Part shown: positions 15,265-54,798 of the stretch, piece by piece
Layout: every line of letters begins with the position of its first letter
Numbering within the stretch: position 1 is the stretch's first letter
Source of the DNA: Mactromeris polynyma
Lineage: Eukaryota > Mollusca > Bivalvia > Venerida > Mactridae
Assembly: GCA_032209605.1 (NCBI GenBank)
Contig: JASFXZ010000027.1
Coordinates: 6,715,372-6,779,371, forward strand
Reading direction: 5' to 3'
Length of the DNA stretch: 64,000 bases
Made by a program: the position numbers and the translations under genes
The notes under the pieces: model-generated
Seen by the model: the letters and a program-made list of their open reading frames with translations, nothing else
The model's database searches: none
Told to the model about the DNA's origin: nothing

Positions 15265-15276
15265 GAAACCGAAAGT
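15265..15276 (+). promoter_or_regulatory. ISRE-like motif GAAACCGAAAGT upstream of the NB-ARC gene
   Basis: The 12 bp fit the GAAANNGAAA core bound by interferon regulatory factors in animals. The site lies about 2.4 kb before the NB-ARC start codon. The copy B counterpart (56776-56787) reads GAAACCGAAATT, so the core is kept. A 10-base core with two free positions can occur by chance, so this is only a candidate. Confidence 0.2.
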
Positions 15277-17715: not shown

Positions 17716-17902
17716 ATGACAAAACCTTCTGTTCAAGTTAGCAAATGGAAGGCGCTGGTGTCCTGGATTTATGATGAACTTCACGCTGACTCTCGGGAAA
17801 AAATAATGTTCGGGTATCAGCTTCAACAGGACAGTATGAATGATAATCACGAATCTGAGATGTCACAACAAATGAGATTTTTTTATGAAGTTGACAATAC
17901 AG
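17716..17902 (+). CDS. NB-ARC/TPR exon 1 (start)
   Basis: The exon encodes the 62-residue N-terminus beginning MTKPSVQVSKWKALVSWIYD, probably helical, with no family I recognise. A 3' splice-like TACATTTCAG at 17654-17663 suggests an upstream non-coding exon. The donor is GTAGGC, phase 1. The copy B equivalent at 60730-60916 differs at two residues. Confidence 0.8.
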
Positions 17903-29900: not shown

Positions 29901-32900
29901 GTTTTAATAATGTCATACCTGTCAGTATGTATACAGTAGAACCTCAATAATGCGGTCTTATTATTGAGGTGGTCTTTAAGTGAGGTTTTACTGTATATAT
30001 CTTTATTTCTGAAATAAAATTAGTCAAACAATCTGCTGATTATAATTTATGGTTATTTTAGAGACAAGAGTCTTGAACAGCATCAAACCTCCTTATGCTG
30101 AAAAAATGCAGTTGTGAAATTGTACTTTCCTGAAAGTTGTTTGATACTTGTGGCCGTGTATTGTATCCATTATGTATTATGTTGTACAGGTATGAAGTTC
30201 TTTGATGTTTGTGGCCATGTATTGTATCCATTATGTATTATGTTGTACAGGTATGAAGTTGTTTGATGTTTGTGGCCGTGTATTGTATCCATTATGTATT
30301 ATGTTGTACAGGTATGAAGTTGTTTGATACTTGTGGCCGTGTATTGTATCCATGATGTATTATGTTGTACAGGTATGAAGTTGTTTGATACTTGTGGCCG
30401 TGTATTGTATCCATTATGTATTATGTTGTAGAGGTATGAAGTTGTTTGATACTTGTGGCCGTGTATTGTATCCATTATGTATAATGTTGTACAGGTATGA
30501 AGTTGTTTGATACTTGTGGCCGTGTATTGTATCCATTATGTATTATGTTGTACAGGTATGAAGTTGGACAAATTGCTGAAACTGGATAAGTTAGATGGTT
30601 TCTATGCTAAACTCAAACTGCGAGCTGATATATATGTGGAGAAGGGTCTTCTTGATGAAGCACTTAATGATGCAAATTTTGCGTCGGACCAGCGTCGAGA
30701 GATCTTACAACCTCCACATACCAAGTTTACCGAGAGTGTTTATCAGGTTGGCCGAATATACATGCTGCAAGGAAATGATTGGAAGGACAAAGGGAATCTT
30801 GGTTAGTTAACTCATCACTTCGCCATATAAAACACAATTAGACTTATGTTAGTTACAAGTCTGTTTATTCATTACAAGCATCATTAACTAAGTTTGTTAC
30901 ATAAAACCAGTATTATTTTTGCTACTGTAGACAGTTGAATTTGCCTTCATTTAGAACTTGGAAAACGTTTTGCAAGTAGAATTGTTTTCAAATCAACCAA
31001 AAATGAGTAATATCACATGTAATAGTCTAGTATATACCACAATCTGTTGGAGTTAGAGTTGGCTGATTTTCATGAATATTTCCAGTGTTTGATGTCACAA
31101 ACTTCACCTTTTACACAATATGTGTATGTACACTGTCTATCAATATTCTCTAGATAAAGCTCAGAAACACTGGATATGTGCGAGTGATTATTTTGATGAG
31201 GTCAAAGACTGTCATTTAAAGGAAGGTGGAATGGACTTGTTGTGTCCGGTGCTGCAGGAAATCAAGAGGGATCATATAGCTTTGATAAAACTGGTGGGAA
31301 AAAGAGATGATCTTAAACGTATTGAGAGATTCTACAAGGTCTGTATCTTATTTAGTTTAAACTTATTCATTTTACATCTATTGTGAAACAAGTTTACAGT
31401 ATATATTTATCACTCTATATTGCTGCTTCCTGGGTTACTTACTGGTACTCATGCCTAATGTAGGGAGTGTTAAGTGAAAGCTTCATCATGGCCAAGGCCA
31501 AGATTCGAACCCACGGCCTTCGGATCAAGTGTCAGGCACTCCACCCTTCGAACTACTATGCCTCCCTGGGTCTTTCATTTAATACCTTATTTTAGTTGCA
31601 GAGTTGTATAAAGTGTTAAGCTCATGTTGAACTAAAGTTATGAATGAACAATATAACCTTAGGTATTCCTTGCATCTTCCTACTAAATTTCATTATTTTT
31701 TGTAAATCATGGGTTTTTCTGACGTCCAAATGTTCTGCATTGTGGAATAATTTCAATGATCATCATATTGTGGTAAATGTAGAATATATCAGTTCTGATG
31801 ATGGTTCTACTTGGTATAGGGTGTTAGTAGGCTAAGTGTTAGTAGGCTAAGTGTTAGTAGGCTAAGTGTTAGTAGGCTAAGTGTTAGTAGGCTAAGTGTT
31901 AGTAGGCTAAGTGTTAGTAGGTTAAGTGTTAGTAGGTTAAGTGTTAGTAGGCTAAGTGTTAGTAGGCTAAGTGTTAGTAGGCTAAGTGTTAGTAGGCTAA
32001 GTGTTAGTAGGCTAAGTGTTAGTAGGCTAAGTGTTAGGTTTGTTGCATCCTTAAACTGGGTACATGTATATTTTTATGTCACCTTGAGATTTAAGGCTGG
32101 CTATGCACTTTGTATGTGGCATTTCCTACTCAATTTATTTACTATTTGAACCCCTCGTGAGGTTTTTACCACCGACCAAGGGGGTAGTCCTATGTTCATC
32201 TGTCATCTACTTACAAAGTGCATGTTTATCCTGTTCAGGACCTTGAAGCAGGAGCATTTGAACCAGAGAAGAAGTCTAGCTCTAAAAACAAAAAACAAAT
32301 GTTGTATACACCGATGGAGATGGTGAAGAAAATGTTTGGTGGTGGAGGTGCTTCGTTTGGAGCCAACGAAGGAAAGTTAGCAGTAAGTGTACTACAGTAA
32401 AAAGACGTGCAATTCGTTTCATCCATTTAGTATTTATTTCTGTTGAGTTAAGCTTGCTACAGGTTGAAAGTGAAACTTCAAATAAAAAAGCAGATAAAAT
32501 GTTTTAGACTTTTCAAGCCTAGTTTGATCGTTGTCATTTACATCAAAACAAAAAGTTAAGTATTTCATTGATGATGATTTAGCGCAATTTCTGAAAAAAT
32601 ACCGATCCCAAAGATAAAGTTAACATCAGACTTGTGTCTGCATCATTTGTGGTTCTCTTGAATTTAAAGTTTTAATAGGTTTCTGTTTCAATGCATGTAC
32701 ATGTATTATTCTTTCTGGCATTTTAAACATTCTAGCGATTGGAGTCCCTCACTCATGAACAACATGACCGTATGGCGCAGGGTGAAACAAGCGGCGGTGG
32801 TCGTAGACGAGATTCTGGTATGGGACATAGTAGTTTTGAAGGCGATAGTTTGTCTTCCGGCAGTGGTAGTATGTCCGAACATATGGCCCAGTTGAACTTA

Positions 32901-33983
32901 CAGAAGTCTTTGTCTATTGAAGACAATGTGTTTGCAGGTAAGTTATGATTTTCCTTATAAAGGTTACTTTCATGCTCGCTGAAGGAGGAGCATGTTGCTG
33001 CTTCATCCGTCCATCCCGCATTTTTTCACATCCTTTGAGGAGCATCAAGGGGGTCTACCCATAATCTTGTTCTAACATATTCTTAAGGTGACAAAGGTTC
33101 TTGTCTATTTGAGTTCAGTTATCATTCAAAATAAGGACAATAATTGTTACACTAGGTAAAATTGACGTACAATAAATCCACCAATGACCATTACATACAA
33201 TAGTAACTTAAATCATAGTACTAATCAGAATAAGATACGTCATATTGAGTACCTTATTGGTTTTGACACAGAAACCTTGCATCGTATGTTACTATGGCAT
33301 AAATTGTAAGTTAAATGATGAGATATTGTAGAATGAAAGGCATGAAAGGCAATGATAGCATTTGAAGCCTGAAGGTCGGATAATGTCAGATAATGTCGGA
33401 TAGTACTACAGTAGATGTAAGTCAAAGCTCGTCTCAAACTGAATTGCCTCATGTTTTATTTAGATGAAATGGAAGTGTGTAGCATATGAATCATTAGCCT
33501 CACAATAAACCCAGTGTTTCTTTTAAATGAACCAAAGACAAAGATAGCCGAGTCATCAATGTATAACTGCTGACATTAATTAATAAATATTTTGTTTAAG
33601 CTGTATATTTTCATTTCATTTAAGCAAGTATTAATTTAGTGTGTTGCTTTCATTTCTTTTTTTTCATTTTGAATGATTAATAGATGTGACAACTGCATGG
33701 ACAACTTTAACTAGTACAGTGCATTATACTTTACTTATTGCATCATGTTTTGGAATGTTTGATGTGTGGAATCTGGCTGTAAATACGATAATCAAATAAT
33801 ATGACTTATAAAAAGGACTTACTTGTTTCAAGAAAAAGAGGTGTTCAATTGTCCATGGTTCAAATGGTAAAAAAACCACTGTTTAAATTATTTCATTCAA
33901 CAGGTCCTGGAGAGAGCACCAGCTCACCTACAACTGTTAGAAGGAAGCAATTGAAGAAACGCCAGAAGACCATTGATGATTAA
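17716..33983 (+). CDS. NB-ARC (STAND) ATPase with TPR-like repeats, complete, 17 exons
   Basis: Exons: 17716-17902, 19665-19871, 20610-20736, 21614-21744, 22303-22467, 22501-22610, 23048-23182, 24143-24904, 26271-26418, 27165-27419, 27907-28003, 28980-29086, 30556-30801, 31154-31338, 32239-32382, 32736-32937, 33904-33983. They join in frame to 1095 codons plus stop. ATG at 17716 is preceded in frame by TGA at 17686. Residues 1-131 are unrecognised. P-loop GLGGQGKS is at 142-149, Walker B IMFYLDDCD at 274-282, sensor-1-like ILMTVR at 312-317, SPLAIS (GLPL-like) at 370-375, and LHPLV (MHD-like) at 497-501. About 610-950 is helical and TPR-like. The tail is Gly/Ser-rich, ending in a basic stretch. 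STAND ATPases of this design are signalling switches, often in immunity or cell death; the function here is not shown. Introns hold several minisatellites and MITEs. Confidence 0.88.
18170..18371. mobile_element. MITE (CRE-containing family), copy 2, in NB-ARC intron 1
   Basis: The inverted ends GAACGCTGCTGTATGATTTC and TAAATCCCCATAGCAGCACTC match the family at 7880 and 45303. The same insertion is present in copy B at 61181-61381, so it predates the segmental duplication. The internal octamer is mutated to TGACATCA here but intact in copy B. Confidence 0.65.
19665..19871 (+). CDS. NB-ARC/TPR exon 2
   Basis: The exon encodes DIGELDSARELKEQLQLLNL and further helix, ending FIGRSSELKLVYEKIE. 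F-I-G-R-x-x-E-L is the typical entry sequence of STAND NTPase domains. The acceptor is CCTCAG and the donor GTGATT, phase 1 to 1. The copy B equivalent is 62665-62871. Confidence 0.85.
20051..20059. other. Empty insertion site AACGAAGAG (copy A)
   Basis: In copy A this 9-mer occurs once. In copy B it is duplicated on both sides of a 402-bp TIR element (63064-63465). This is therefore the unoccupied pre-insertion site. Confidence 0.85.
20610..20736 (+). CDS. NB-ARC/TPR exon 3: P-loop
   Basis: The exon encodes VKCVCICGLGGQGKSCLARK, the Walker A loop of an AP-ATPase/NB-ARC domain, then PDMAVVRVDLR. The acceptor is TTGCAG and the donor GTAAGT, phase 1 to 2. The copy B counterpart would start just past the window end. 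Confidence 0.93.
20893..21044. mobile_element. 152-bp fold-back MITE with CAGGAGATTGTCATG ends
   Basis: The left half (CAGGAGATTGTCATG, then CTCTCCCTTTATCCC) is the reverse complement of the right half (GGGATAAAGAGAGATAACTC, then CATGACAATCTCCTG). It would form a long hairpin. Related half-copies lie at about 20440-20545 and 63890-63990, and an expanded copy at 28620-28945. Confidence 0.75.
21614..21744 (+). CDS. NB-ARC/TPR exon 4
   Basis: The exon encodes RDIERTIDVIKSML and ENILKQYLLNSTQ, helical segments following the P-loop. The acceptor is TTTCAG and the donor GTAAGA, phase 2 to 1. Confidence 0.8.
21955..22290. repeat. TCCTTGAAAA-rich interspersed repeat in NB-ARC intron 4
   Basis: Both flanks repeat CCTTGAAAA and AGTCCTTGAA motifs (21963-22055 and 22255-22285). 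The right end runs directly into the polypyrimidine tract of exon 5. I see no coding capacity; the family is not identified. Confidence 0.4.
22303..22467 (+). CDS. NB-ARC/TPR exon 5
   Basis: The exon encodes KVLYEISDPSVSSF and onwards to WSIRKHV. Two donors are possible: GTAAGT at 22464 (phase 0) would put a stop at the next junction, whereas GTATGT at 22468 keeps frame and joins HV-R-IMFYLDDCD. I choose the latter. The following intron is only 33 bp, unusually short. Confidence 0.7.
22501..22610 (+). CDS. NB-ARC/TPR exon 6: Walker B
   Basis: The exon encodes IMFYLDDCDSVLQND, a hydrophobic strand followed by D-D as in Walker B of NB-ARC ATPases. The acceptor is TTAATAG and the donor GTAAGT, ending in phase 0. 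Confidence 0.88.
23048..23182 (+). CDS. NB-ARC/TPR exon 7: sensor-1-like segment
   Basis: The exon encodes VKILMTVRVRLSSVYQ and ELLELEKEDAIQMFQEYS. The first matches the sensor/RNBS-B strand (K-I-L-x-T-x-R). The second matches the L-x-x-L-x-x-x-E-A-x-x-L-F helix of the NB-ARC ARC1 region. The donor is GTATGT. Confidence 0.88.
23250..23740. repeat. 28-bp minisatellite in NB-ARC intron 7, about 17 copies
   Basis: The unit is GTTGGTTGGTCTGYCAACTG followed by ATAGGCTG, with alternating C/T at one site. It starts about 65 bp after the exon 7 donor but contains no splice junction of that exon. Confidence 0.95.
24143..24904 (+). CDS. NB-ARC/TPR exon 8: ARC region, largest exon
   Basis: A single 254-codon exon with SPLAIS (GLPL-like) near its start and YSLHPLVFRFLSE (MHD-like) at about codon 141. 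Long helices follow, with LLPHM and ADILLSLVKKRRMFQ at the end. The acceptor is TTTCAG and the donor GTAAGC, both phase 0. Confidence 0.92.
25240..26090. repeat. 49-bp minisatellite in NB-ARC intron 8
   Basis: The unit includes GAGTGACAGTGGTGTGTTGG and TGATAGTGATTCGAGTGAGG, with a period of 49 bp over about eleven good copies. It is preceded by degenerate shorter units (GTGTCAGTGATGTGGGGGTA). Confidence 0.95.
26271..26418 (+). CDS. NB-ARC/TPR exon 9
   Basis: The exon encodes SEADRALKVKNNDVYIFWMV and KPDIAMKILDELSNGKFT, the start of the helical repeat region. The acceptor is TTTCAG and the donor GTATTT, ending in phase 1. Confidence 0.8.
26945..27122 (-). repeat. tRNA-derived SINE (family 2) just before NB-ARC exon 10
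   Basis: On the minus strand the head reads AGGCATAGTGATCAAGTGG (A box region), then CAAGTTCAAATCC (degenerate B box), then a body shared with 31385-31570 (CAGGAAGC, GTAAG). It lies about 45 bp before the exon 10 acceptor. Confidence 0.6.
27165..27419 (+). CDS. NB-ARC/TPR exon 10: TPR-like
   Basis: The exon encodes VHALFHKVKGTTYWKQFNY, TAQQHLELSLRFYEK and LDSAEHVLNQ, paired helices with the small/large residue spacing of TPRs. The acceptor is TTTTTAG and the donor GTAGGT, phase 1 to 1. The coding sequence upstream of 27165 in the same open frame is SINE and not exon. Confidence 0.85.
27907..28003 (+). CDS. NB-ARC/TPR exon 11
   Basis: The exon encodes ALSSVKEVVRVNEQTPNK and VAGELHWDIPR. The acceptor is TTTCTAG and the donor GTGAGT, phase 1 to 2, consistent with both neighbours. 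Confidence 0.8.
28620..28945. mobile_element. Expanded fold-back element related to 20893-21044
   Basis: It begins GATTGTCACAAGTTCTCTCC, ends near GGCAACCTCCTG, and contains tandem GGGATAAAGGGAGAGAACTC blocks in between. The arrangement suggests internal tandem growth inside a hairpin MITE in NB-ARC intron 11. Confidence 0.6.
28980..29086 (+). CDS. NB-ARC/TPR exon 12
   Basis: The exon encodes RFFTYFARIKLKRAMAAE and YLEHALEDINH, a TPR-like helix pair. The acceptor is TTTCAG and the donor GTAAAA, phase 2 to 1. Confidence 0.82.
29934..29993. mobile_element. 60-bp pogo/Tigger-like mini-MITE
   Basis: CAGTAGAACCTCA and the inverted TGAGGTTTTACTG bound a 60-bp element flanked by TA. GGTCTTATTATTGAGGTGGT in its centre is shared with the longer copies. 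Confidence 0.6.
30132..30561 (+). repeat. 61-64-bp array of the exon 13 splice acceptor
   Basis: Each unit ends in ATTATGTTGTACAG and continues GTATGAAGTTGTTTGATACT. The last unit is the true intron/exon 13 junction. Junction copies fall at 30190, 30251, 30312, 30376, about 30437 (TAGAG variant), about 30498 and 30556. The repeat thus duplicates the branch/pyrimidine region, the AG and the first exon bases. AG|GTATG in each unit could also serve as a donor. Confidence 0.95.
30556..30801 (+). CDS. NB-ARC/TPR exon 13: TPR-like
   Basis: The exon encodes MKLDKLLKLDKLDGFYAKLK, LRADIYVEKGLLDEALNDA and VYQVGRIYMLQGNDW, one or two TPR units. The start at 30556 is chosen because it joins the phase-1 end of exon 12; earlier array acceptors would insert repeat sequence. 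The donor is GTTAGT, phase 1. Confidence 0.88.
31154..31338 (+). CDS. NB-ARC/TPR exon 14
   Basis: The exon encodes DKAQKHWICASDYFDEVKD and LKRIERFYK, the last helix pair. The acceptor is TCTCTAG. The donor GTCTGT is weak, but the frame requires phase 0 here. Confidence 0.75.
31385..31570 (-). repeat. tRNA-derived SINE (family 2), better-preserved copy
   Basis: Minus-strand B box GGGTTCGAATC and A-box region AGTAGTTCGAAGGGTGGAGT are followed by a body shared with the copy at 26945. It lies in NB-ARC intron 14. Confidence 0.65.
31819..32036. repeat. 15-bp minisatellite in NB-ARC intron 14
   Basis: The unit is GTGTTAGTAGGCTAA, about fourteen nearly identical copies, two with GTTAA. There is no coding or splice content. 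Confidence 0.97.
32239..32382 (+). CDS. NB-ARC/TPR exon 15
   Basis: The exon encodes DLEAGAFEPEKKSSSKNKKQ and MVKKMFGGGGASFGANEG, the start of the low-complexity tail. The acceptor is TGTTCAG and the donor GTAAGT, phase 0 to 0. Confidence 0.82.
32736..32937 (+). CDS. NB-ARC/TPR exon 16: Gly/Ser-rich tail
   Basis: The exon encodes GETSGGGRRRDSGMGHSSFE, DSLSSGSGSMSE and LNLQKSLSIEDNVFAG. It is likely disordered. The acceptor is TTCTAG and the donor GTAAGT, ending in phase 1. Confidence 0.82.
33904..33983 (+). CDS. NB-ARC/TPR exon 17 (stop)
   Basis: The exon encodes PGESTSSPTTVRRKQLKKRQ then KTIDD and TAA at 33981. A strongly basic end, possibly a nuclear or membrane-contact signal (inference). 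The acceptor is TCAACAG. Confidence 0.82.
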
Positions 33984-36853
33984 CTTGAGGAATTTATGCA
34001 ACTATTTTTTTATGAGTTACATATTTCATAGATGAGTGTTTTCTTACACCTAAAGCAATTTGAAAATTATTAATCGTCAGACAAGGTTCAGGTATTATAC
34101 TTAATGAACATTGAATGACAAGTGATTTTATAATGGAATTGAAATTGAAGCCAAGCATGTTTATGCATTTTATTTCATGAGTTTGTAAAAATGTGTTTAT
34201 CTTTATGTTATATGCTTCACTTGATGTTTCTATTTGCAGTATGTATATCCTTTTAAAGCCTTTGTTTTACTACTTTGATTGTTTGAGTGTATAACTTGAT
34301 GCTTCTATTTGCAGTATGTATATCCTTTTAAAGCCTTTGTTTTACTACTTTGATTGTTTGAGTGTATAACTTGATGCTTCTATTTGCAGTATGTATATCC
34401 TTTTAAAGCCTTTGTTTTACTACTTTGATTGTTTGAGTGTATAACTTGATGCTTCTATTTGCAGTATGTATATCCTTTTAAAGCCTTTGTTTTACTACTT
34501 TGATTGTTTGAGTGTATAACTTGTTGTACTACTTTGATTGTTTGAGTGTATAACTTGTTGTACTACTTTGATTGTTTGAGTGTATAACTTGTTATACTAC
34601 TGGTATATATCCATACCTGTGATAATGAAAGACAAAATGTTTAAGGGGATTAATGGGATACATGTATCATCTCCTTCACCTTTTACTACAAAATGTAGTA
34701 GAAAATCTTTACCTAAATGGGAAATCTAGATTCCATATGGGGGATTCCCTTATCTTGTTCCTGAGCAGTAAGAATGTTACTATTGTTAAATTTCCCATTC
34801 AGGAATTTTGCAAATCAAAAAAGTTGCAAACAGATGTTCACAAAACGTGGAAATAAGTGTACCACATGAACTGTTGTGAATGAAGAAAATCTTGCTGGGT
34901 GATATTTTCACATTTTGGAATTCACATAATTGCAACCATTTCAGTGTGACAATCTGTACCACTGATACGGTGCACTATCTGTCAGACAGTGTAAGGGTCC
35001 CGTGTTGATCTTTCTGCGTGGACAGGTTTGTCAGAACACCAGTCTGGGGTTCCACTAGGGCTGAATCTCAAGGGTCAATGTGATATTTTTTTACTGGATT
35101 TTACGATTTATAAAAGAGAGAGAGAATAAGTTGCTAAAGGGAATGCCACATACATACGACAGTGCTAGCCAAGATACCTATAACTTAGAGAAAAATTTAC
35201 CCTTCAGCCAGAATCATGAAGGTCAAAACGTGGCTTTTTGGAAATTTTAGTGGTCATCTCCAGGGTCAAATGGAACATCTGCCAGTCAGCAAACTGTTAA
35301 AGAAGTGTGCATGTGTTGGACATTTCTAAGAAGACAATATGGTGTGTGCATGCTAACATTATGTTTATCGTTTAAATTCCTGCAATTATCCCAAAAGTAC
35401 TTTGCTTCATCGTGCCATTGGAAGAGTTTGTTATGTGCATTATGTAATAAGTGCCATTTATTTTTGTTTCTTTGCAAATTTTGTGTATGATGCATGCAAG
35501 TGTAGTATGCAGAATATGCAGTATGTCTTTTTGTTATGTCCAAACTTACTAATTTTCTATGAGCATTGTATGTGTGGACAATGTACAAACGGATCTCACA
35601 AAAATGTATTTGAAATTGAGTTGTAGATATGTTTTGATATTATTTTTCTATCTCCATTCATTTATTATGTAATTACTGTATGTAAAAACCATTTTACATA
35701 ATCAATAAGGAATGACATCCTGGTCAACGAAAATAGGACAGTTGACTCCCAATTATCTTCCAGAATACACTTTGCTCTATGCATATGCTATAGAAAGTTC
35801 CCACATTTACAATATTTACTTCCCTTGTTCTGAATGGTCAGCCGTATTGATAGGCAAATTTCCTTAACGTTTAGAGGGAATATAATATAAACGATGATAA
35901 AATAATCAGATATAAAAAGTAACTTATTTATTAAGCTCATGTGGTCAGATGACTCAGAAAGTTGATGAAAAAGTGGTTATCCATGCAAATTCTCTTGGTA
36001 TTTTCTCTATTATCACATATTTATGAATTACTCCTGTAAGTACTTATTAGTTTTGCCTATCAAAATGGCCGATGATTATGAACAAGGGAGGTAAGTATTG
36101 TAGATGTAGGAACTATCTATTGATTGTGACAAATTCGGGGGGGGGGGGGTAACATGCATGAAATACTTTGTTGACAAACTTGTATGCTAAATGACACCTT
36201 TGTCATTCTCAGATCCTGAAAAAATCACTCGGATACCTCAAAATTTCTTATTTATGTCACAGAAAAAAAATCTACTTTCGTTTTAATGTCTAAAATAGGT
36301 CACTATTGATTCAGAAATGGGACAATGTCAATTTCAATAAATTCACTTTATGACATGAAGCAAATTCGGGTAGTTTAAAAAAAGAAGAAAAGATGATAAA
36401 CTGAGTTAAAATTTAGTTTATAATGTGACAAAAATAGGCAACTGTAATCAGCTCAAAGTCAAAAAAGATTTTTTCATGAGATTTTTTCATGAGATTTTTT
36501 TTTTTTTACACATTCATGTTCGGCTTTTGTAATAAAATTTGTACAAATTTAATGTTTTTGTCATCACTGTCACAGAACAAACATTAAAGAGACTGCTCCT
36601 TGAAGAATAAAAAAATAATGTGCGCAATCCCAAACTTTTCGTTCTGTTACTGCTACTGTCCCAGAAGTTATTAACAAAACTTGCCATCTCTTTCCTTACT
36701 GAGAATCACTTCCCTAACGGGGCACAACATATCATGTCATCGATCTGTCAGTGCTGAGTTAACATGTCCGCTACTCAACATCATCAAATCAGCATAGCGT
36801 TCATCTGATGCACCAACATTGCACATTCTCATAGTCATACAATTGAAAATACA
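33984..36853. other. Intergenic between convergent NB-ARC/TPR and CLP1 genes
   Basis: No exon was recognised. It includes the NB-ARC 3' flank, the array at 34221-34590 and a G-run near 36140. No canonical AATAAA was found just after 33983. Confidence 0.5.
34221..34590. repeat. 75-bp array decaying into 34-bp units, 3' of NB-ARC gene
   Basis: Four units of about 75 bp begin TTGATGYTTCTATTTGCAGT and end GTTTGAGTGTATAAC. About three 34-bp units, keeping only the 3' half, follow. Each long unit carries an acceptor-like TCTATTTGCAG, but no following exon is seen. Confidence 0.93.
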
Positions 36854-36960
36854 TCACTGTATGTCCATAAACTGAATATCTGTCTGTAGTAATATATGCT
36901 TTGGTAGTGGGTGGGGTGATGGGGATAAAACTGTAAAACTTTGTTTATCTTGGTTAAATT
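36854..36960 (-). CDS. CLP1: CLP1 exon 12 (C-terminus)
   Basis: The exon encodes [20 protein letters not shown] and DIQFMDIQ then TGA, matching the conserved CLP1 end. The acceptor is ACATACAG. Its reading frame needs one base from the previous exon, but exon 11 supplies two. Confidence 0.82.
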
Positions 36961-39900
36961 CTGTATGTAAAACAAAAATATATAGTATAATCTCACATAA
37001 AGACCATCTCAATAAGAAGACCACCTCAAAATTAAGAACATAATTTGCAAGTCCATTTTCACGGTTTTGCTCTTTAATCAACCTCAATATTAAGACCATC
37101 TTAATAAGAAGACCAATTTTCAAGGGTCCCAAATGTGGTCCTATTATTGAGGTGTTACTGTATATATAAGAAATAGTATTTGATATTATACTGGAGAGAT
37201 GGGTTGACAGTATCCACAGATGGATAGATATTAGAAGTTCACTCCTAATTAAAGTAGTTGAAATAATATCTACACGTTATGGATAGATTTATATTAAACT
37301 GCAGCTCTAGTGCATGTATACAGCAGTGTATCAAATGTGTCTAACACGTTGGATAATTTACAATAAAGTCAAAGAACAAAGTAACTCTTTAGTGCAGGTA
37401 AGACTTACTGAGCATCAATTTGATTTCAAGAGTACTTGTATTGTCAATTTGGTTGAAATTTTAAGTTTCATTTGTTTCACTTGGTAATAATATCGTGCAG
37501 TAACAATGTGTACATTTTACAGGTACAAAAGTTTAAAGCCACCATTAACGTACTACTCGTGACAATTTTTAAATCCTGTCGAAACAAATACCACTTCAGA
37601 TATATACTGACCTACAGTATATAATACTTACAATACTATAAATCCAACAATATTTGTCTCTATGACATTATCGTCTGTAGAATCTGCACAGCTTACACTG
37701 AATACATGATGTAGTAGACTGGTACCTGGAAATGTAATAATATGTTATAGACTGGTACCTGGAAATGTAATAATATGTTATAGACTGGTACCTGGAAATG
37801 TAATAATGTGTAATAGACTGGGACCTGGAAATATAATAATATGTAATAGACTGGAACCTGGAAATATAATAATATGTAATAGGCTGGTACCTGGAAATAT
37901 AATAATTTGTAATAGACTGGTACCTGGAAATATAATAATATGTAATAGACTGGTACCTGGAAATATAATAATATGTAATAGACTGGGATCTGGAAATGTA
38001 AAAATATGTAATAGGCTGGTACTTGGAAATGTAATAAAATGCAATCCACACAGATCCACAAGTATGGAATACATACAATTATAAGTACTTACTGGGAGTT
38101 AAAGGAACAAGCTTTGTTTTGTTGTCTTGAGGTTTCATTCCTAACGGTAAACATGAATCTGGTAAATTTGGTGCTGAAAGATATAAATGTATCTTTAAGT
38201 AACAACAGTACCTGGAATACCACATCCAGAAATAGGCAAATTTTGTTTAGTTATATCTGGCATTATGATTAGGTTTAATATCAAATAATTTCTCAATCAT
38301 AATAAAGAAATTAAATAAAAAGTATCCTAAAAGCTGTAAATCTATTCACAGAGATATGATGTAAAACAATTATGTTGAAATAAATCAATTATAAAATGAT
38401 AAATGTAACATATAATATTTTACCTCCAATTTTATAGATCTTGATATCCGCAGCTTTCACTTCAAAAGTGTGAGGAAATAGCGAGTTCTTATTACCATAG
38501 AAATATTCACGCACCTTCGCATCTCTTGCATCTGATCTTGCTGTCTGATTTCTCTCTACAACCTATGTAATAGTCAATGAAATATTTAGATTTTTCCTAT
38601 GTTTTGGAATAGTAGTTATATACTGTTGCTATATATAACGTATAATGGTATTGCAAGATAATTTCTTACAACTTTCAACTGTCCATGAAGTTTAAAAACA
38701 AGACATCACTGTAGAATACATGCACATTGTGGGGGGAAATTGTCTGTTTAACTTTTAAAGTCTAAGCTCAATTTTCCTCAGTGCAAATGTTCAAATTAAC
38801 GAGAAATGTTCCATACACATGGCAATCCTGTTCTATTCCAATTTAATTTTTAATGACATGGTGTTTTATATGCTTGCTTAAGTCCTTTAATGTATGAAGT
38901 AGCTTGTACAGGTCATGAACAACTTAGACATCATGTCAAGTTACTGAATTCTTTATATAACTTATATTTTGTCACCTCCTATTAGAAAAGAGGTGTCCAT
39001 CATTTAAAGGTTTATATGTTATTTTCATAAAATGATACAATCAGTTCCCAAGCAGAAAAAATAAAGCTATGTCAGCACCATTATAATACTTACCCCTCCA
39101 GACTTCGGGAGTAAAATGATTCTGACAAAATCGGGCATATCTCTCTTCAACTCATTATAGAGTCGTTCTTGGTCCATTACCGCTATCACATCCACTATAA
39201 AATAAATCAACCAATCTTTTACTATTGTATTGTAAATGCATTGATTTAAATTTGTATATAACAAGACAAAAAATTCCAGTAAAAATTCCAGTAAAGAACT
39301 AAATGAATTTTTAGAGTGCAGCATTAATGGTGGTTAGGTAATGAGATGATGGCAAACATAATAATAATTGTGTAAGTACATGTATATTCAACAAGACTAA
39401 AAATTTCCGGTTGAGGACCCGATGCATTTTTCTAGTGCAGCATTTTCAGTAGGTAAGTAAGAAGGCAGACATACACCTTTAAAATTTTGTTTTTTGTGAA
39501 CTATGAGGCAGTGTGGGTACGTTTGTGTGCAGTCCTAGGTATAAGGTTGTGAACTATGAGGTAGTGTGGGTACGTTTGTGTGCAGTCCTAGGTATAAGGT
39601 TGTGAACTATGAGGTAGTGTGGGTATGTTTGTGTGCAGTCCTAGGTATAAGGTTGTGAACTATGAGGTAGTGTGGGTATGTTTGTGTGCAGTCCTAGGTA
39701 TAAGGTTGTGAAGCCTGATAAATGAATACAAAAGTAATTCATCACATGTACTGTCACAGTGGTCAATCACAAACATACTTCTCATCAATATATCATAATA
39801 ATTCAAACATACAGTCTGGACTAGTTTTACGACAACCTTCTATCCAAATACTTGGCATAATCTGACATCCTGATGTATCTTCCTGGGCATGTTGAATTGA

Positions 39901-42900
39901 AATGAGCTATTCAAAACCATGTTTTATTCGATTTAAAGTTTCGGACCTGAAAAATTTCAATGAATGAGGTCAAACTGTATTTCAATTCCATTTCACTACT
40001 GGACAAATTCTGGATGACATAAACCTTCTGACACTGCAAACATATAACCTGTCAACAAATACCTGAGTACACTTAGCATGTTTACCTTCGAATGAGCCAG
40101 CTGCATGTTTTAATGAATCGGCTGCATGTTTTAATGAATCGTAGCCTGATCCTCTAACCCAGCCTCCTGTATTCACTATCACACCACTGTGGTTTACTGA
40201 AACAGAACAGAAACATAGTACCAACCTGAAAAGAAACAATACTTCATATCGACTGGCTACCTATACAGTATTACCTCAATAACAAGACCACCCATGGAAG
40301 CTGCTCTTCTTATTGAGGAGGCGCCTAAATATCGGGGTTGAATAAAGAGCAAAACAGTGAAACTGAACTTGAAAATTGTGATCTTAATTTTGAGGCAGTC
40401 TTATCATTGAGGTGGTCTTTAATTGAGGTTTTAGTGTAGTACATTTACAGCTAACCATTGCCCTCTTCTGCACTCAGCACATATGTTTTCAGATACAATG
40501 ATGATATATTACAAATGAATGTATATTATTCTTTTCCTCAATGTTTACCGATAATTGTTTTGCTTCTGCTCGTCGCTGACTCTAAAATCTTTTACTGAAT
40601 GTCTCAACTAGCTGTTGCAATTAATGTGAAAACATGACGTCATCTTAATTGCGTTTTTCTCAGAAACGTTGCTCAGTGCATTTGGGCCAAAAATCTCTGA
40701 GACTGCCACATTTATGTAAGTCAAGAGGGTCAGCTTTTTGCAGATATTTTCAAAGAAATTATTTTCACAGAAATAAACAAACTACAAAAACAACTAATTT
40801 AAAACGTACGAATAGTTGCAAGGTTTACAGTAGGTGGAACAAAATTCTACCTTTTTATATGAATCACATTTCATATTGATGACATCAGCAAGACGTGACA
40901 CAAGCATATTATATAATGTGAGATTTTTTGACGGAGTTGTATGACCAAAATGAAACACTAATGGAGCACTTTGTGTGAAACCTTCTTCAATATCAGCTGG
41001 ACGTTCAATTACATATGCCCCAATGGTCCCAGGTATGGCCACCTGACCCTGAAAGTAAGTAGACATCAGTAGGAACCTTGTGTTAACAATCAACAATATT
41101 TTACAGATACATGTTACCAAGGACAAATAAACCGTGGATTCAAAACAGGTTGGTATATGTAATTGTTCGAACTCTCACGAGCGTTGAGATTATTTTTCCG
41201 AGATTGAACGATTGGAACACCTCGTACAATTCTACAAAAATGATCCATGATAATAGCAGAGATGTTCCGATTACCAGTAAAAAATTGGCGATGTCCACCA
41301 TCTTGTTTCTGAATCCAGAGAAGCTGACATTTTAAACTGCCATAATCGTCGTGTTTACAAACAGCTATACGTATAATATTCGTGTTTATCTTGTTGGTTG
41401 CATGTATGCATTTTTTGGTTCAATACTGAGTTGTAAGACTGAAGGAGTGCGTTTAATCGGATGAAATTTGATTAAAATCCTAAGGATTGTGGGTAAATTG
41501 CATGCTAAGGACTGTGAGAAAAATAATTTCTTCTTTCACCGATATCAGCCTGTTTTGAATCCATGGTTTATATGTCTGTGATGTAATAAGAGACCAAAAA
41601 AATTGGTCCTAAATTCACTAAGATATCTTGTAATAAAAGCCATTCAACTAAAGCTGCATCTAATTAAAAGTTGATACACTGTGATCTTCAATTCATATAT
41701 ACTAGAGATGGCAATTTTGATATTTGAAAATTCAGTCAACCTTCCAAAAGGTATATTCAAACATTCAACTTTCATCCATTAAAAATGGCATCAACTGCGT
41801 GTTTATCATTTTTTCTAGCATACATGCGTTAATGTATGTTGCATACAAAAAGCTTGTAACCCAACAAAAAGAAAACTATAGGGTCACTTATTTCAACTTG
41901 TTCATGAAAGTGAAAACAAAATGGAAATGTCTAGTTGAATCTATAGACCTTTGTTCAGCTATATGTGCTGGATACTAAATTTCAATCATAAATGATACAG
42001 TGTTACATAAAGAAATTTTAATTCATTTCATCACGGACTTATATACATGGATTCGCGACAGGCAGATATCCGTGAAACGGTATGAACGAATAAAAAACCC
42101 ATAATCCTTAGCGCGCAATTACCCACAATCCTTAGCGCGCTCGGAAAGTATCGAAGATTGCCGATTTTTATCGATCGACTAAAGTCGGCAAACTCCGTTC
42201 ATTTCCGTCCGTTTCAGACTCTGTTGATTAAATGTCCGTGTAATTTACAAAATGAGATAAACAAGTTGGTAATTTTCCGCTTTAATTCTGATATTTTCAT
42301 CGAAGTTTAATTGTATTGTTGATGTTGTTTATTAATACATTTCCACGCCAATTTGATAGTTTAAAAGACTGCTGTGAAAACAATTTGGGTTAAATAATCT
42401 TTAAAAAGGTGTAAAAATCGACCAAACAATGGATGTAGATCACGCAAGCAATATGCCATCATGACATTTTTATGTACACAAGTCTGCTATTTTCACCAGC
42501 ACAAGGCGTAAAAATCAATATTAAAGTAGGTCAAATCCAGGTATTTATTGTCTGTGCAGCAATTCTTGTGACATCAATTTTATTTTGAACAAGAATTAAC
42601 ATTCCAATATGTTTGAAGTCGCTGGCTAAGTCTTTGAAGTAAATATTTTTGGATGACAGATGCAGCCCCATTGTGCAAATTACGTATTGAGATCAAAGAT
42701 TGATATGACCTTATCGTTGAAATTATCAATGGGATTAATTATATCTAACAGGAAATTAACACATAATAAAGATCTCCTGGGGTTTTATGACTCTTGTGTT
42801 TTTACAGCTGACACATGGGGCATTTAGTGACTAGTAGGACTAATCTTCTGTCTAGGGCGTGGCTTACGAATTGCAAAACAATTAGCATCAACCAATCAGA

Positions 42901-45900
42901 TTAAATGAACCGTAAGAAATATTTATTAAATAATGTCAATTATAATTCGAATTTTTATATCAAAATTAGATGACACTTAGGTTTTGAATACGATATATTA
43001 CTCATTTTTCTACTTACCTAAATTGTTAACACCCAGTGCAAATGAAAAATTAAATGAAGAAATAAAACCTTTTCTAGCTCCTCTAAATTTAAATTACCGT
43101 TGAAAGACAGACAGACTCAAAAGTAAGTAACCAATACTGGTATGTCACCCTAATTTTATTTTTTTCACTAATATTGCCAAAATTATTGGATCAATTATTA
43201 ATGCGAGTAATTATTGATGTTATAATTGATTTAAGTTGCGTTAAATAAGCATTTATTGCAAATTTAGCATCGATATATATAAATTGCAACTAATTAAAAC
43301 AAGAATATAAGAAAGATATTTTGGTAGAAAATTGACTTGACCGCTTTCAAATTATTGGTGGAAATGACATTAAGCATGAATAATGCAATCGGTAAGTCGT
43401 GGTCTAGTGGTTGAGGAGAATAAGTACTAGTACTAAATGAATCCAGCATGTCCTTAGACATTACAATAACACAACACACCTCAGTCCATCCACTTTGAAT
43501 AGATGCCAATTATATAGATACAATATGCTTGCTCATTCTCATAAAGTCCAGTCACGAGTTGTGTACTGAGAATGAAGAGAAACATTTTGTTTGAATTTCA
43601 ACCCAACAGTTGCAGCCGTCTAAATTTTCCTCAAAGCTTGCACAACGAATCTAGATGAAATCTAGATGGGTAATCAGTATATAAATACTAGACTAGTGCA
43701 GATATAGTGCCATATCTAGATAACTAAGTTGAAAAAGAAATACACACACTATAACAGTAATTACAATTTTATTTCAAGAACTCTGCATTTCAACGCAAAA
43801 TATTCAACAACGATAGAAAACCACTAGTTTATATGTAATACCACGGACCTATATACGGGTATAACCACGGACCTATATACGGGTATATAGGTCCGTGGTA
43901 ATACTACACAATTGTTTTTTACTTAGTCAATCACAGATTGAATTAATTTCAGTCACAAAATTATCAATGGATTAAAATGTACAAGGAAAAGTTCCGGAGT
44001 ATTTTCCAAGAAGAAATTCATATCAACTCATTGACGAATGTTTGTAAATTCACAGCATATTTCTTTTTGTAACCAAGTTGACTTTTATGAGGCATCTTGT
44101 AAATATCCAGGAAACCTGAAAAGATAAAGTAATATTTAACATTACAGCATATCCTAAACAATTTTATATTATAATGATATGACAATAAAGTGTATTTACA
44201 TTTTTATTATGTAATTGATATGTGTAAAAAGCTTTTCAAGCCCCACATTGGGTGCACTTTTCCCCCTTGAATTACTTAAATGGTGACAGTGTGACGATTG
44301 AGCCTCAAATTTATGCCGGAAGAGGGAGGAGTGTAGTGCTGTAGGGTTAGGCGGCCATCCGGTAAGCTTAGTCGATAGAGAGCCATACTAGTATCTAAAT
44401 AGCATCAGCTGATGGATTTACACGAGATGTTATCATTTTATAACCAACATGTATCCGAAATATATATCCGAACTTCTATACAACAAAATTTAGACCGTAA
44501 AAGTGCAATTATTGATTTATATAATAATAATTCTAAACAAAAAGATGATAAATAACGGAAAACAAAATAATCAAGCTAACGAAGGGAATAAATTACGTTC
44601 TATAACGGACTTTTTAACCAAGTATGTAATTTACGGATCGCCTGTAAATCGAAATTTCTGCCGATTAAACGACGCTCGTTTCGTCGAACAACTAGGTGTT
44701 GAAGCAAAAAATGCATACAAGCAAACAACAGGATGAACTCAAAATATATAAATGCCATTAAGAAATGTTTAGCTGTAGTATTCGTCATGATTTCGGCGGA
44801 TCAAAAAGTGAAATTCTCTCGATTCAGCAACAAGATGGCGGACATCGCAATTTTTTCTCATCATTTGCTAAACATTTTAGAGGTGTTCCGATTGTTAAAT
44901 CTCGGCTGGGAAATCTCGCCGTTGCCGTCATTTCAAGCAAGTTCAGCACAAATATCAGCCTGTCACGAATCCATGTATATAGGTCCGTGATTTCATGTTG
45001 TAAAAACTTGACTAATTGATTAAAGACAGGGCTTATTGTTCATCATCAGAGTGTTCAAGTTTCTCTTCGGGACCCCGATTATACTACTGACATGTATTAA
45101 CACTTGTAGATGTATCATGTCATTCAATTCATTGGTTACCAGACCATTACAATATTTAACTCTTGCTTTTAGCTTTCTAATCGATTTTTTTATTTTATTG
45201 AATATTCAAATGCTGAGACAGTATTAGAATATTTGGAAATAAGAACGAATATTCAAATTCGAATTTTGTTCATTGTTATAATGTATAAAACTAAAACGGT
45301 ATATGAGCGACGCTGTACGATTTCCAACCTCTTCTTAAAGTCACGTAATTTCCAGAATATGTCACATGTGACGTTACCATGTACTGACAGTAAGCAATAT
45401 TTGCCCCATAAGGCAATAATAAAACAAAGTGACCATATGGAGTAAAATATTGTTTCCCGCTTGCACATAGTCATGATAGTAACATCACAGGTGACGTTTT
45501 CTTGAAATGACGTCACTTACAGAAGAGGTTGGAAATCCCACAGCAGCCCTCATACAGTTTTGCAAGAATTGAAATATTGATCAGGGGGATTTCAGTATTG
45601 TAATCTTTCTCCTTAAAGAAATATATAGTACAACATTTCAATTTGTTTTCCGCAAATAAATATTGCTACATCAGAAACATACCTGGCCGACATCTAGGTC
45701 TACCATCATCGGTGCTCGTCCCATTCGTGCAGCATAGTTTAATAATATTGTGCATAAAGTACTTTTGCCAACATCAGATGGTCCAACAAGCAATATCTGA
45801 CAAAATATACACATTAAGCAATTTAATCAACATGCTTACATCCACACTATTGACATAGAAAGCTACAAGTAACTATACTCTTTCCAAATTCGAGTTAATT

Positions 45901-48900
45901 TGTTAAAATCACATTAATTAATCAGTTATGGCCCTTTTCTAAGACAGCAAACATTCTCTTACAGTCAAAGATTTTAAAATACCTCCAAATTCATAGAATA
46001 TCACCAATAGAACTTGTCTCAGGTAAAATATTTACAATGTTGTGTACCAGAAACAGTACATGGATTATTAAGGAATGCTCATAGATCTGATTGATGACAA
46101 TTGTATGCATTGCTATGATTTATTAATTTACTTTGTGTAGACAATACTAGATATTAACACAGACTCAGGTTCATTGAATAAATATAAATATTAGAGGCTA
46201 AAATATATATTTTAAAACAGATGAAAGCTCAAGAAATGGATAATAGCAGTTATTCAGTACTCAATCTAAAAAAACGGTGGATAACAAAGATAAACGGCAT
46301 TCAATTGAGTATTGAAATCCACACACTCAAATCACAGCAAAGTAAATCAGAGTTTTTGATCGTGGACAAAGATCTTACCAAACTTGTATCAACATTACTC
46401 ACCCTGGGTCCACCAAAGTTGTATCAACATTACTCACCCTGGGTCCACCAAACTTGTATCAACATTACTCACCCTGGGTCCACCAAACTTGTATCAACAT
46501 TACTCACCCAACTTGTATCAACATTACTCACCCTGGGTCCACCAAACTTGTATCAACATTACTCACCCTGGGTCCACCAAACTTGTATCAACATTACTCA
46601 CCCAACTTGTATCAACATTACTCACCCTGGGTCCACCAAACTTGTATCAACATTACTCACCCTGGGTTCAACCAACTTGTATCAACATTATTCACCCTGG
46701 GTCCATCAAACTTGTATCAACATTACTCACCCAACTTGTATCAACATTACTCACCCTGGGTTCAACCAACTTGTATCAACATTATTCACCCTGGGTCCAC
46801 CAAACTTGTATCAACATTACTCACCCTGGGTCCTCTAGTTTCTTCTTTCTCTGATCTCTCCCTCATTTGTTCTAAAGCAACATGAGCATTAAGATATACT
46901 ACCATGGGTGTCTCCTTAGATATATATGCTACTTCAGTCAAGTTCAGTGCAACCTGATAACTGATTATCTGTTAAGGGATCTGTGGATAGTAAGGATGAT
47001 TTTACTAAATGCAAACACTACGTAGACAAACATTTACCTACAACAAAAACTACAAAGAAAAATCAAAAGAATATAATACAAAGGGTCATAACTCTAAGAA
47101 AAACAGTCCGACCAGAACTACCTGATAATATGTGCATATCCTCTTGGTATTGAAGCTTCCCATATTTTTTGCTGAATTTCTGATAGTAGTTTCTGAGAAG
47201 TAGTCCGGACAAGAAAAGTCGCACAGACAGAATCTCATAGATGAAGCTGCGACTATATGCCTCCCCCCTTCGGGAATGGGGAGCATAATAACATTGCTCA
47301 TCTAGTACCTTCATAGAGTAATGTACGGAGACACCAAACAAATATTTTTTTTAATATGGCAAAGAAGACCACTTAACTAGTCAAAGTTTTAAAATCACAA
47401 CCATCACAATCATAACACATTTACAAGTACTCATTTACTGTATGATTTTATGTTAATGTTTTACACATACTGTGATAGGATTAATGAACTTTTCTTGGGG
47501 GGGGGGGATTCTTTAACCAGTATTTTGAAAAGTAGCAAGCAGTCATGTCTCAAAAATTAGCAATTTAATAATGATCAAAGGTAGAATAACTAGAAAGCTT
47601 TAAAGATTTATACATCATTAAAATAGAACCCTGTGTCAGCTATGACAAAACATGTGGAAGATTCTTCATGAAAGAAACAGAAAAAGTAAAAATTACATCA
47701 TGAATAACTAAGTTCAATAACTCAAAACTCACTCAAAATTAAGATATTTGATATATAATTATCTAGTATTGTGAAAAGGATACTTTTATTTGACAGCTAT
47801 GCCACGAGAACACAGCAACTTTGGATCCTGCATTAAAATTGTACTTTTTCCCTGAGGTTAATTCACTGCCGAATATTTCAGCTTTCCCACTCACTAACTG
47901 AAAAACACAATGACAAACATATTGATCTTTTGACTACAATTGATGGCAAGTTCAACGATGGAAATATAATCCAGTTGTTGCAATAACAGGTTCAGCTATT
48001 CAGCCAAGAGGTTGTAGGTTAGAATCCCCCAAAGCCATAACCAAAGACAATGGTAACAGTTTTTCACACAAAGTGAACTAAAAGTAAAACTGAATTCAAA
48101 TACATATTTCATGCTGTCTTCAAAATTGATCAAATTAAGACTTATTAAGTGTTGTAAAATTCATCCAAAATCCACTTAAAGTCCTTGGATTATCACAACA
48201 AGCAAAGATCACCATTCATTTACTATGATCTATCTAAGTAAGAATTCACTACCTCTTGCCCACTACACATCCCAAGTTTAGTTTATTGCCATTCCATACT
48301 TAACTATGGTAACTTTTAATTATTGTTGTGCAGTTGCCATCCCCCTGAAGAGGCCAGTATCACTCAAACACCATCACAATGTTTCTTCATATATGTATTG
48401 ATCTATGACAATATTTTCATAGGTTCACAAATAGTGTTAAATAGTAACAGCACTTGCCTAAATCTTTATAACAATTATATATATAATTTTGCATATTTTT
48501 CTCAAAATTCTCTGACCAAAGATGACTACATATTACACTCATAGTCATAATCACCAGTATTTTACCCTTTGAATCAATCCAGTAATTAAACCCCCTCCCA
48601 AGTGCCAAAAACTACCAATCCTTCCAACTGAACTTCTACGAGTATCTGTAAGTGGTCAGAGTTTTAAAGAATGTAATTTTTCTATCATCCAATTCAACTC
48701 AGTTACAAATCATGTCCACGTCCAGTAACAAGACCACAATTAAATGATACTTGCAAGAGACTAATCTGAATTAAATAGAGTCTGCAGACAACCATGAAGT
48801 CATGTAGACTGGCTATCGGTTATCTGCTTATCATGAGGAAACACTTACTTCTAACTGGACTGTAGAACCAGATTCCACTTCAAACCTCAGTTCTGATTCC

Positions 48901-52144: not shown

Positions 52145-52573
52145 TTTAAGTTCAGATATAACATTTTAGCATGGAGAGTTCAGATATAACATTTCATCAT
52201 GGAGAGTTCAGATATAACATTTTAGCATGGAGAGTTCAGATATAACATTTTAGCATGGAGAGTTCAGATATAACATTTTAGCATGGATAGTTCAGATATA
52301 ACATTTTAGCATGGAGAGTTCAGATATAACATTTTAGCATGGAGAGTTCAGATATAACATTTTAGCATGGAGAGTTCAGATATAACATTTCAGCATGGAG
52401 AGTTCAGATATAACATTTTAGCATGGAGAGTTCAGATATAACATTTCAGCATGGAGAGTTCAGATATAACATTTTAGCATGGAGAGTTCAGATATAACAT
52501 TTTAGCATGGAGAGTTCAGATATAACATTTTAGCATGGAGAGTTCAGATATAACATTTTAGCATGGAGAGTTC
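52145..52573. repeat. 28-bp minisatellite abutting duplication copy B, about 15 copies
   Basis: The unit is GTTCAGATATAACATTTTAG then CATGGAGA. The last unit is broken at GTTCAG and copy B starts at once. Copy A has no such array at its left edge. Confidence 0.96.
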
Positions 52574-52931
52574 AGAATCACGTATTTAAACTTTTTGCAC
52601 GACGATAGACTAAAAGCCAAAATGTCCTTCAAGGTGAAGGTTAAGATTGAATATGTGACAAATATCAGAACAGAAATAACATGAAAATTCATTTATTTAA
52701 CTCGGAACCTTTCGAGTTTTCATTGCTTGGTGTAGCCACGTTGAGAGTGAGTGTTCCCTTAGCATCCTTTGACTGGATAATACATGTGTGCAATTCTCTG
52801 ATAAGGGAGATTTGTCCATTCTTTAATCAAACCGTGATGTCGCTGTGTGCCTTGAGTCGGGAGTAGCTGACGTCTTTAAATAATCGTCGTTTGAAGTCTG
52901 CCTAGACGGAGCCCAATATACGGTCTGGCCA

Positions 52932-53135
52932 GTCCATAGCATGTGTACCAGTCTGATGGATAAACTGGGCTGTAATGTTAGTACATGGCATGTGTACCAG
53001 TCTGATTGATAAACTGGGCTGTAATATTAGTACATGGCATGTGTACCAGTCTGATGGATAAACTGGGCTGTAATGTTAGTACATGACATGTGTACCAGTC
53101 TGATGGATAAACTGGGCTGTAATGTTAGTACACGC
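52932..53135. repeat. 49-bp array, four copies, specific to copy B
   Basis: The unit is CATGTGTACCAGTCTGATGG then ATAAACTGGGCTGTAATGTTAGTA, period 49, with copies at 52943, 52992, 53041 and 53090. Copy A has one unit at about 10535, next to which it expanded a different 71-bp unit. Confidence 0.93.
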
Positions 53136-54187: not shown

Positions 54188-54263
54188 ACCCAATGAGAGA
54201 GTACACCCAATGAGAGAGTACACCCAATGTGAGAGTACACCCAATGAGAGAGTACACCAAATG
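54188..54263. repeat. 17-bp minisatellite, copy B, four to five copies
   Basis: Same CCCAATGAGAGAGTACA unit and flanks as 11894-12543, but about one eighth of the length. Confidence 0.95.
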
Positions 54264-54753
54264 TTGATAATATAATTGGATATTCTGTTGAAAAGGGCGA
54301 CAGAAGTACTTTTGATAGTAAATATGAGCATCAATATATCAGAAATGTTACTGAAACACTGGACACTGGAAACACGGATGCTAACACTGAAAATGTTGTT
54401 AAGTGTACTGGGAAAGCACAGAGTACCGGAGCGGAAGATATAGATACACGTAGTCCCCTACTATTCAGTCACGGACGGGACGGGGACCGGAAGTATATAA
54501 TCTGTTCCAACAGATGCACTCTGACATCCTTGAAATCAAATATTCACAATATATACATATTGCAGAAACAAAATGCCAGTTTGAACAAATATGTGATGAA
54601 TTATAATGTACAAAAAGCAGGCATCATTGTTAAATTCACATACATATGTCGGAATTCAGGCATTATATGAAACACAAAGTACTATGGTGTAAATTTATGC
54701 GCAAAAAAGATACTTCAGTGTCCTCGGGGTACAGTTATCACTTTCTTCTTCTA

Positions 54754-54798
<45 letters not shown>

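What the first reader, a model, noticed from the sequence alone, without database searches (positions are those of the whole stretch)
30132..46830. Three independent splice-junction minisatellites in one window: a recurrent process?
Arrays at 30132, 37716 and 46384 have different units, genes, strands and junction types, yet each is built on a real exon/intron boundary with AGGT or AGGGT at the junction. Other arrays here (23250, 25240, 31819, 39496) do not include junctions, so it is not universal. The known model in which tandem duplication of AGGT-containing DNA can create introns fits well. Here the process may be ongoing as minisatellite growth, giving a genome-level source of splice-site copy number.
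Basis: partly seen in the sequence, partly recalled or inferred. Interest (0 to 1): 0.8.

Follow-up and report, generated by a model that had tools for sequence, protein, structure and literature searches.

The report
Minisatellites straddling clam splice junctions
In a clam genome, three short repeat arrays have grown out of exon-intron borders in two genes, copying the splice signal 7 to 14 times; repeats of this kind were already described in lancelets, and nothing here shows that these ones have made new introns.

Summary
The three arrays are real, and each straddles a splice junction supported by homology. The window is bivalve DNA near Mactridae. Array 30134-30566 covers an acceptor of an NB-ARC/TPR gene. 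Arrays 37709-38045 (acceptor) and 46377-46833 (donor) both lie in one gene, CLP1, on the minus strand: two genes, not three. Each array enters its exon by only 9-17 nt. Only the exon-proximal copy keeps the reading frame; all 28 other copies would give a premature stop. None of the three arrays holds both ends of its intron, so the classical AGGT intron-birth model is not met. AG|GT is ordinary here (23 of 67 junctions). Best reading: "mirage" minisatellites, known from amphioxus Adh3, globin, troponin C and PGBD5 genes; my open-access searches showed no mollusc case. Placing founder units at random predicts 0.3-0.6 junction hits among 8 genic arrays (P(>=3)=0.002-0.017, uncorrected for selection). 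Placing whole arrays predicts 3.7. Per position, junctions lie in local repeats less often than intron DNA (3 of 68 against 148 of 1500). The genome-wide test was not possible: the own-genome search did not complete.

The parts
30134..30566 (+). Array 1: 61-bp minisatellite, 7 acceptor copies TTGTACAG|GTATGAAGTTG (one reads TAGAG); covers the last part of intron 11 and 11 nt of exon 12 of the NB-ARC/TPR gene
30556..30801 (+). Exon 12 of the NB-ARC/TPR gene; true acceptor at 30556
   Evidence: homology to Mactra P0121 residues 759-839; 16 exons join into one open frame of 1038 codons
37709..38045 (-). Array 2: 33-bp minisatellite, 10 acceptor copies; 320 of the 367 nt of CLP1 intron 9 plus 17 nt of exon 10
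37632..37725 (-). CLP1 exon 10; true acceptor at 37725 ([13 protein letters not shown] join)
   Evidence: homology to Mactra P0001
46377..46833 (-). Array 3: 35/24-bp minisatellite, 14 donor copies; 9 nt of CLP1 exon 3 and the first part of intron 3
46825..46953 (-). CLP1 exon 3; true donor CCCAGG|GTGAGT at 46825 (TRGPR-ILLVGP join)
   Evidence: homology to Mactra P0001
36854..48926 (-). CLP1 (polyribonucleotide 5'-hydroxyl-kinase) gene, 11 coding exons seen, first coding exon not found
17722..33984 (+). NB-ARC/TPR (NLR-like) gene, 16 coding exons; start codon side approximate

Best explanation
These are mirage-type minisatellites. A segment of about 35-60 bp lying across an already existing splice junction was tandemly duplicated, probably by slippage or template switching (for arrays 1 and 2 between short direct repeats, one in the intron and one 11-17 nt inside the exon), and then grew by unequal exchange or further slippage. 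Growth is tolerated because the copy next to the exon body still forms the junction, so the extra copies fall into the intron and are removed with it. Shown: array structure, junction identity, exonic origin of the repeated scrap, and that only the exon-proximal copy keeps the frame. Inferred: the duplication mechanism, that the exon-proximal copy is the one used in the cell, and that no special attraction to junctions is needed.
For: Array and junction coordinates. Exonic scraps encode GMKL, STSLLH and GPR, found at the same places in the Mactra proteins. All of 6 + 9 + 13 extra copies give a premature stop when translated over the exon pair; the exon-proximal copies do not. Short direct repeats at the founder edges of arrays 1 (AAGTTG, exact) and 2 (TATTACAT/TACTACAT, 7 of 8). 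Unit variants of array 3 recur in a partly repeated order. Other arrays in this window changed length fast: 38.4 against 4.5 copies of a 17-bp unit in the two copies of a duplicated block. Same anatomy in amphioxus, where RT-PCR suggested normal splicing (PMC3087553 passages; PMC3902484 passages).
Against: No RNA evidence for which copy is used; most extra copies score like the true site. Array 3 shows no clear founder microhomology. CLP1 has two exon joins that lose the frame at the expected GT-AG sites, so its present-day function is uncertain. Under the founder-unit null three junction hits among eight arrays are more than expected (P 0.002-0.017), which leaves room for a junction bias.
Confidence: 0.8

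Rival explanations
1. Recurrent, junction-biased process: something about junctions (sequence, transcription, or selection that hides such duplications) makes minisatellites start there more often than elsewhere in introns, giving the genome a supply of splice-site copies.
For: Founder-unit null: 0.29-0.60 expected, 3 seen of 8, P 0.0023-0.0167. Recurrent reports in amphioxus genes.
Against: Whole-array null expects 3.7 of 8; with 16 repeats P is 0.0166-0.0572. Per position junctions are not rich in local repeats: 3 of 68 against 148 of 1500 intronic controls. Picked by eye from one window; two of the three arrays share a gene.
Confidence: 0.15
2. Intron birth: the arrays are, or recently were, the source of introns by duplication of AGGT-containing DNA.
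For: Two junctions read AG|GT. A potato intron arose from a duplicated intron-end/exon-start, and fission yeasts have an intron across four copies of a 24-bp AGGT repeat (PMC4974935 passages). The array 1 unit also holds a fair donor (9.22, at or above 17 of 32 true donors).
Against: 0 of 3 arrays hold both intron ends: donors at 29086 and 38093 and the acceptor at 45796 lie outside. The third junction is AGG|GT. AG|GT is at 23 of 67 junctions anyway. Intron age in relatives was not tested.
Confidence: 0.03
3. A regulatory device: inner copies are used at times and send the transcript to nonsense-mediated decay, so array length tunes expression.
For: Inner copies have strong splice signals and all 28 give premature stops.
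Against: No RNA data. Stops are expected by chance in intron sequence. In amphioxus RT-PCR suggested no disturbance.
Confidence: 0.06
4. Assembly artefact: the arrays are collapsed, inflated or misjoined in the assembly.
For: A 10-kb block occurs twice at 90.7-97.3% identity by piece, as unresolved haplotypes can give. Two CLP1 joins are off frame.
Against: Units carry ordered variants. The NB-ARC/TPR gene joins into one open frame of 1038 codons over 16 exons. CLP1 residues are as conserved as in Mactra: one private change each at 383 columns.
Confidence: 0.04

Closest known systems
Amphioxus 'mirage' minisatellites (Adh3; globins BflGb6 and BflGb9; also troponin C and PGBD5) (PMC3087553 and PMC3902484, passages)
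   Same: Tandem units spanning an intron/exon boundary; both 5' and 3' boundaries affected; many units carry the splice signal; authentic copy at the exon edge
   Different: Here in a bivalve; the units are 24-61 bp (amphioxus: 150-160 bp and 157 bp in globins, 10-72 bp in Adh3); splicing and length instability not tested here
Human internal tandem repeats at exon-intron boundaries in segmental duplications (PMC2812944, outline and passages)
   Same: Minisatellite-size units at exon-intron boundaries
   Different: There transcripts show repeats kept or spliced out and novel introns; here there is no transcript evidence and the introns look pre-existing
Intron gain by tandem duplication (Rogers model; potato RdRp case; PMC4974935, passages)
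   Same: Tandem duplication involving splice signals; the potato case duplicated an intron end plus exon start, as in arrays 1 and 2
   Different: No new intron is seen here and no array holds both ends of an intron
Intron minisatellite of abalone TSSK1-like gene (PMC6905558, passages)
   Same: Mollusc intron minisatellite (27 bp) with differing repeat numbers
   Different: Not described in the passages as crossing a splice junction

Membership tests
Mirage minisatellites | Tandem, minisatellite-like units | tested here: met
Mirage minisatellites | Unit spans a true intron/exon boundary | tested here: met
   Three of three arrays; junctions by homology and GT-AG
Mirage minisatellites | Exonic part of the unit copied from the adjoining exon | tested here: met
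   9, 11 and 17 nt encoding conserved residues
Mirage minisatellites | Regular splicing not disturbed | not testable with these tools
   No transcript data; only the exon-proximal copy keeps the frame
Mirage minisatellites | Length instability between alleles | not testable with these tools
   Seen only for other arrays between duplicated blocks
Classical AGGT tandem-duplication intron gain | Both ends of the intron lie in copies of one segment | tested here: not met
   0 of 3 arrays
Classical AGGT tandem-duplication intron gain | Intron absent in close relatives | not tested
   No relative's gene DNA at hand
Recursive splice sites (ratchet points) | Acceptor directly followed by a usable donor (AG|GT...) | tested here: inconclusive
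   By weight matrix only: array 1 site scores 10.82 as acceptor and 9.22 as donor, best donor score of 36 acceptors; array 2 fails as donor (2.39) and array 3 copies fail as acceptors, five checked, -6.46 to 2.07
Recursive splice sites (ratchet points) | Stepwise splicing intermediates | not testable with these tools
   Needs nascent RNA or lariat data

The most novel reading that the evidence does not exclude
Junction-anchored minisatellites are a systematic class in this clam, arising at junctions above the intron background. In array 1 the seven ACAG|GTATGA-type copies are two-way splice sites, so wrong use of an upstream copy recreates a donor (ACG|GTATGA) and can be corrected by another round of splicing: a tandem ladder of recursive splice sites that makes array growth harmless.
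Probability: 0.07. Interest if true: 0.7.

Novelty: new member of a known kind. Interest (0 to 1): 0.36.

Why it matters
If junction-anchored arrays prove common in bivalves, mirages would be no lancelet oddity but a general by-product of minisatellite-rich animal genomes. They also offer natural series of 7 to 14 near-identical competing splice sites in one transcript, a ready test of how the spliceosome picks one. As it stands, three cases in two genes widen the known range and little more.

Tried and rejected
Classical intron birth from the arrays: rejected, because none of the three holds both intron ends; the variant seen in potato is not excluded for the future. AGGT as a special mark: rejected, because AG|GT is at 14 of 32 donors and 9 of 35 acceptors (a 36th acceptor, exon 16, also AG|GT, failed its anchor there and was added). 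Inner copies adding coding repeats (33-nt unit of array 2): rejected, all 9 give stops. CLP1 as an old pseudogene: not supported by residue conservation, though two joins are off frame. Degenerate junction copies missed by the repeat finder: searched within 600 nt, ungapped, at 68 junctions; beyond the three arrays none reached 22 of 30 matches, one reached 21. Genome-wide enrichment: not run; the genome search on the own genome was unanswered in six tries. The original mirage paper (PMC117041) is not held; what I say of Adh3 and troponin C comes from PMC3087553 and PMC3902484. PMC2206037 holds neither term.

Rows dropped: the chance test used 8 genic arrays. Seven have at least 3 copies; 28713-28925 is two blocks of 2.8 copies of 25 bp inside an 85-bp repeat of 2.5 copies. 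A second run added eight 2-copy repeats. One genic repeat, the exonic 40100-40141, was left out of both. Repeats outside the three gene spans were not used. Two guanylate cyclase donors were not found and their exon ends (519, 2104) were estimated; the 68 junctions (ends of introns) and the 68 (mapped sites, outer ones included) are not quite the same set. The weight matrices were built from the window's own sites, the three array sites included.

Full report
What the window is. It is animal DNA of about 34% G+C. The best protein relatives are bivalves. The CLP1 pieces of the window share 372 of 408 aligned residues (91.2%) with Mactra antiquata and 353 of 408 (86.5%) with Ruditapes philippinarum. 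A second gene shares 626 of 1034 residues (60.5%) with a Mactra antiquata protein. So the species is a bivalve close to, but not, Mactra antiquata (Mactridae). Three genes were mapped with homologues: a receptor guanylate cyclase (about 0.4-9.3 kb, plus strand), an NB-ARC/TPR gene (17.7-34.0 kb, plus, 16 coding exons that join into one open frame of 1038 codons) and CLP1 (48.9-36.9 kb, minus, 11 coding exons seen). The NB-ARC/TPR name rests on domains precomputed for the Mactra relative and on weak hits below the curated cut-offs in single exons.

The arrays. Tandem Repeats Finder gives 30134-30566 (61 bp), 37709-38045 (33 bp) and 46377-46833 (35 bp with 24-bp variants). Array 1 has 7 acceptor copies; the last is the acceptor of exon 12 at 30556. 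Array 2 has 10; the last is the acceptor of CLP1 exon 10 at 37725. Array 3 has 14 donor copies; the first is the donor of CLP1 exon 3 at 46825. The arrays reach 11, 17 and 9 nt into their exons. Array 2 makes up 320 of the 367 nt of its intron. In array 3 the unit variants recur in a partly repeated order, as multi-unit exchange would leave.

Direction of copying. The exonic scraps in the units encode GMKL, STSLLH and GPR, which stand at the same places in the Mactra proteins. The arrays therefore copied existing junctions into the introns. At the founder edges array 1 has the same 6 nt (AAGTTG) and array 2 an imperfect 8-nt match (TATTACAT/TACTACAT), consistent with slippage or template switching between short repeats; array 3 shows none that I could see.

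What the extra copies would do. Each alternative join was translated over its exon pair. All 6 extra acceptors of array 1, all 9 of array 2 and all 13 extra donors of array 3 give a stop; the exon-proximal copies do not. By weight matrices built from the window's own sites, most copies are as strong as the true one: array 1 extras 10.82, 10.82, 10.82, 11.42, 5.1 and 9.79 against 10.82; array 2 extras 9.17-10.09 with one at 0.94, against 9.79; in array 3, 8 of 13 extra donors have the true 9-mer, 3 score 8.1 and 2 score 6.22 against 9.68. Which copy the cell uses is not shown. The array 1 acceptor also reads as a fair donor (9.22, at or above 17 of 32 true donors), the best of 36 acceptors, the next being 5.08. 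That is the basis of the recursive-splicing speculation. Arrays 2 and 3 do not share the property. Recursive splicing was looked up in a search listing with abstract openings only.

Is it more than chance? Of eight genic arrays three cross a junction. If whole arrays are dropped at random, 3.72 would (P(>=3)=0.818). If only the founding unit is placed, in introns or across one junction, 0.29, 0.40 or 0.60 would, with P 0.0023, 0.0057 and 0.0167, depending on how much exon may be included. With eight 2-copy repeats added (16 in all) P is 0.0166-0.0572. Seen per position, 3 of 68 junction-centred 30-mers have a copy within 600 nt with at least 28 of 30 matches, against 148 of 1500 intronic controls: junctions are not rich in repeats. 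The first test counts events and the second counts bases, and neither is corrected for the case having been picked by eye. A bias is possible but not shown.

The AGGT argument. AG|GT stands at 14 of 32 donors and 9 of 35 acceptors, so its presence at two of the three array junctions says little; the third is AGG|GT. The classical intron-birth model, as told in PMC4974935 (passages), needs a duplicated exonic segment that gives both ends of the intron. No array reaches the other end: the donors of introns 1 and 2 are at 29086 and 38093 and the acceptor of the third is at 45796. The same paper reports a potato intron born from a duplicated intron end plus exon start, and fission-yeast genes with an intron across two or four copies of a 24-bp AGGT repeat. 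So arrays like these could in principle give rise to introns; no sign of that is seen here.

Known kind. [quoted passage not shown] It calls them mirages and notes that both 5' and 3' boundaries are affected, that many units carry AG/GT, that RT-PCR suggests normal splicing, and that lengths are unstable. PMC3902484 (passages) adds troponin C and PGBD5. PMC2812944 (outline and passages) describes minisatellites at exon-intron boundaries of human duplicated genes. My searches (one search listed 20 of 937 papers and one search listed 20 of 26) showed no mollusc case, only an abalone intron minisatellite not said to cross a junction. The library holds open-access papers only and I read passages, so this absence is weak evidence.

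Points against a clean story. CLP1 has two exon joins (e5/e6 and e10/e11) that lose the frame at the expected GT-AG sites, and an odd e2/e3 join. Its residues are as conserved as those of Mactra (one private change each in 383 columns of nine sequences). Recent damage, unusual splice choice or assembly indels cannot be told apart here. A block of about 10 kb is present twice at 90.7-97.3% identity by piece, which may be a true duplication or two haplotypes in one contig. Its arrays differ in length between the copies (38.4 against 4.5 copies of a 17-bp unit), so arrays here can change length quickly. Whether the three junction arrays do is not known.

Noticed in passing
10170-20556 and 52576-64000: About 10 kb, including the first exons of the NB-ARC/TPR gene, is present twice at 90.7-97.3% identity by piece, offset about 42.4 kb: a tandem duplication or two haplotypes in one contig. 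The 28-bp array 52149-52576 ends exactly where the second copy begins.
   Followed up: partly
11893-12544 and 54187-54263: The same 17-bp minisatellite has 38.4 copies in one copy of the duplicated block and 4.5 in the other.
   Followed up: partly
40100-40141: A perfect 21-bp tandem duplication inside CLP1 exon 6 repeats DSLKHAA, absent from the bivalve relatives shown; 14 bp from the donor.
   Followed up: partly
40851-40196 and 37632-36960: CLP1 joins e5/e6 and e10/e11 lose the frame at the expected GT-AG sites; other joins scanned give insertions or non-standard ends.
   Followed up: partly
47784-46953: CLP1 intron 2 has a donor GTATCCTTTT and, near its acceptor, TCCCTTAAC, which look like a minor (U12) intron (consensus recalled, no call). 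Exon 3 starts VALNL where relatives have LSGR, with a 10-bp direct repeat close by.
   Followed up: no
34219-34601: An array just past the 3' end of the NB-ARC/TPR gene with nested 75-, 34- and 17-bp periods.
   Followed up: no
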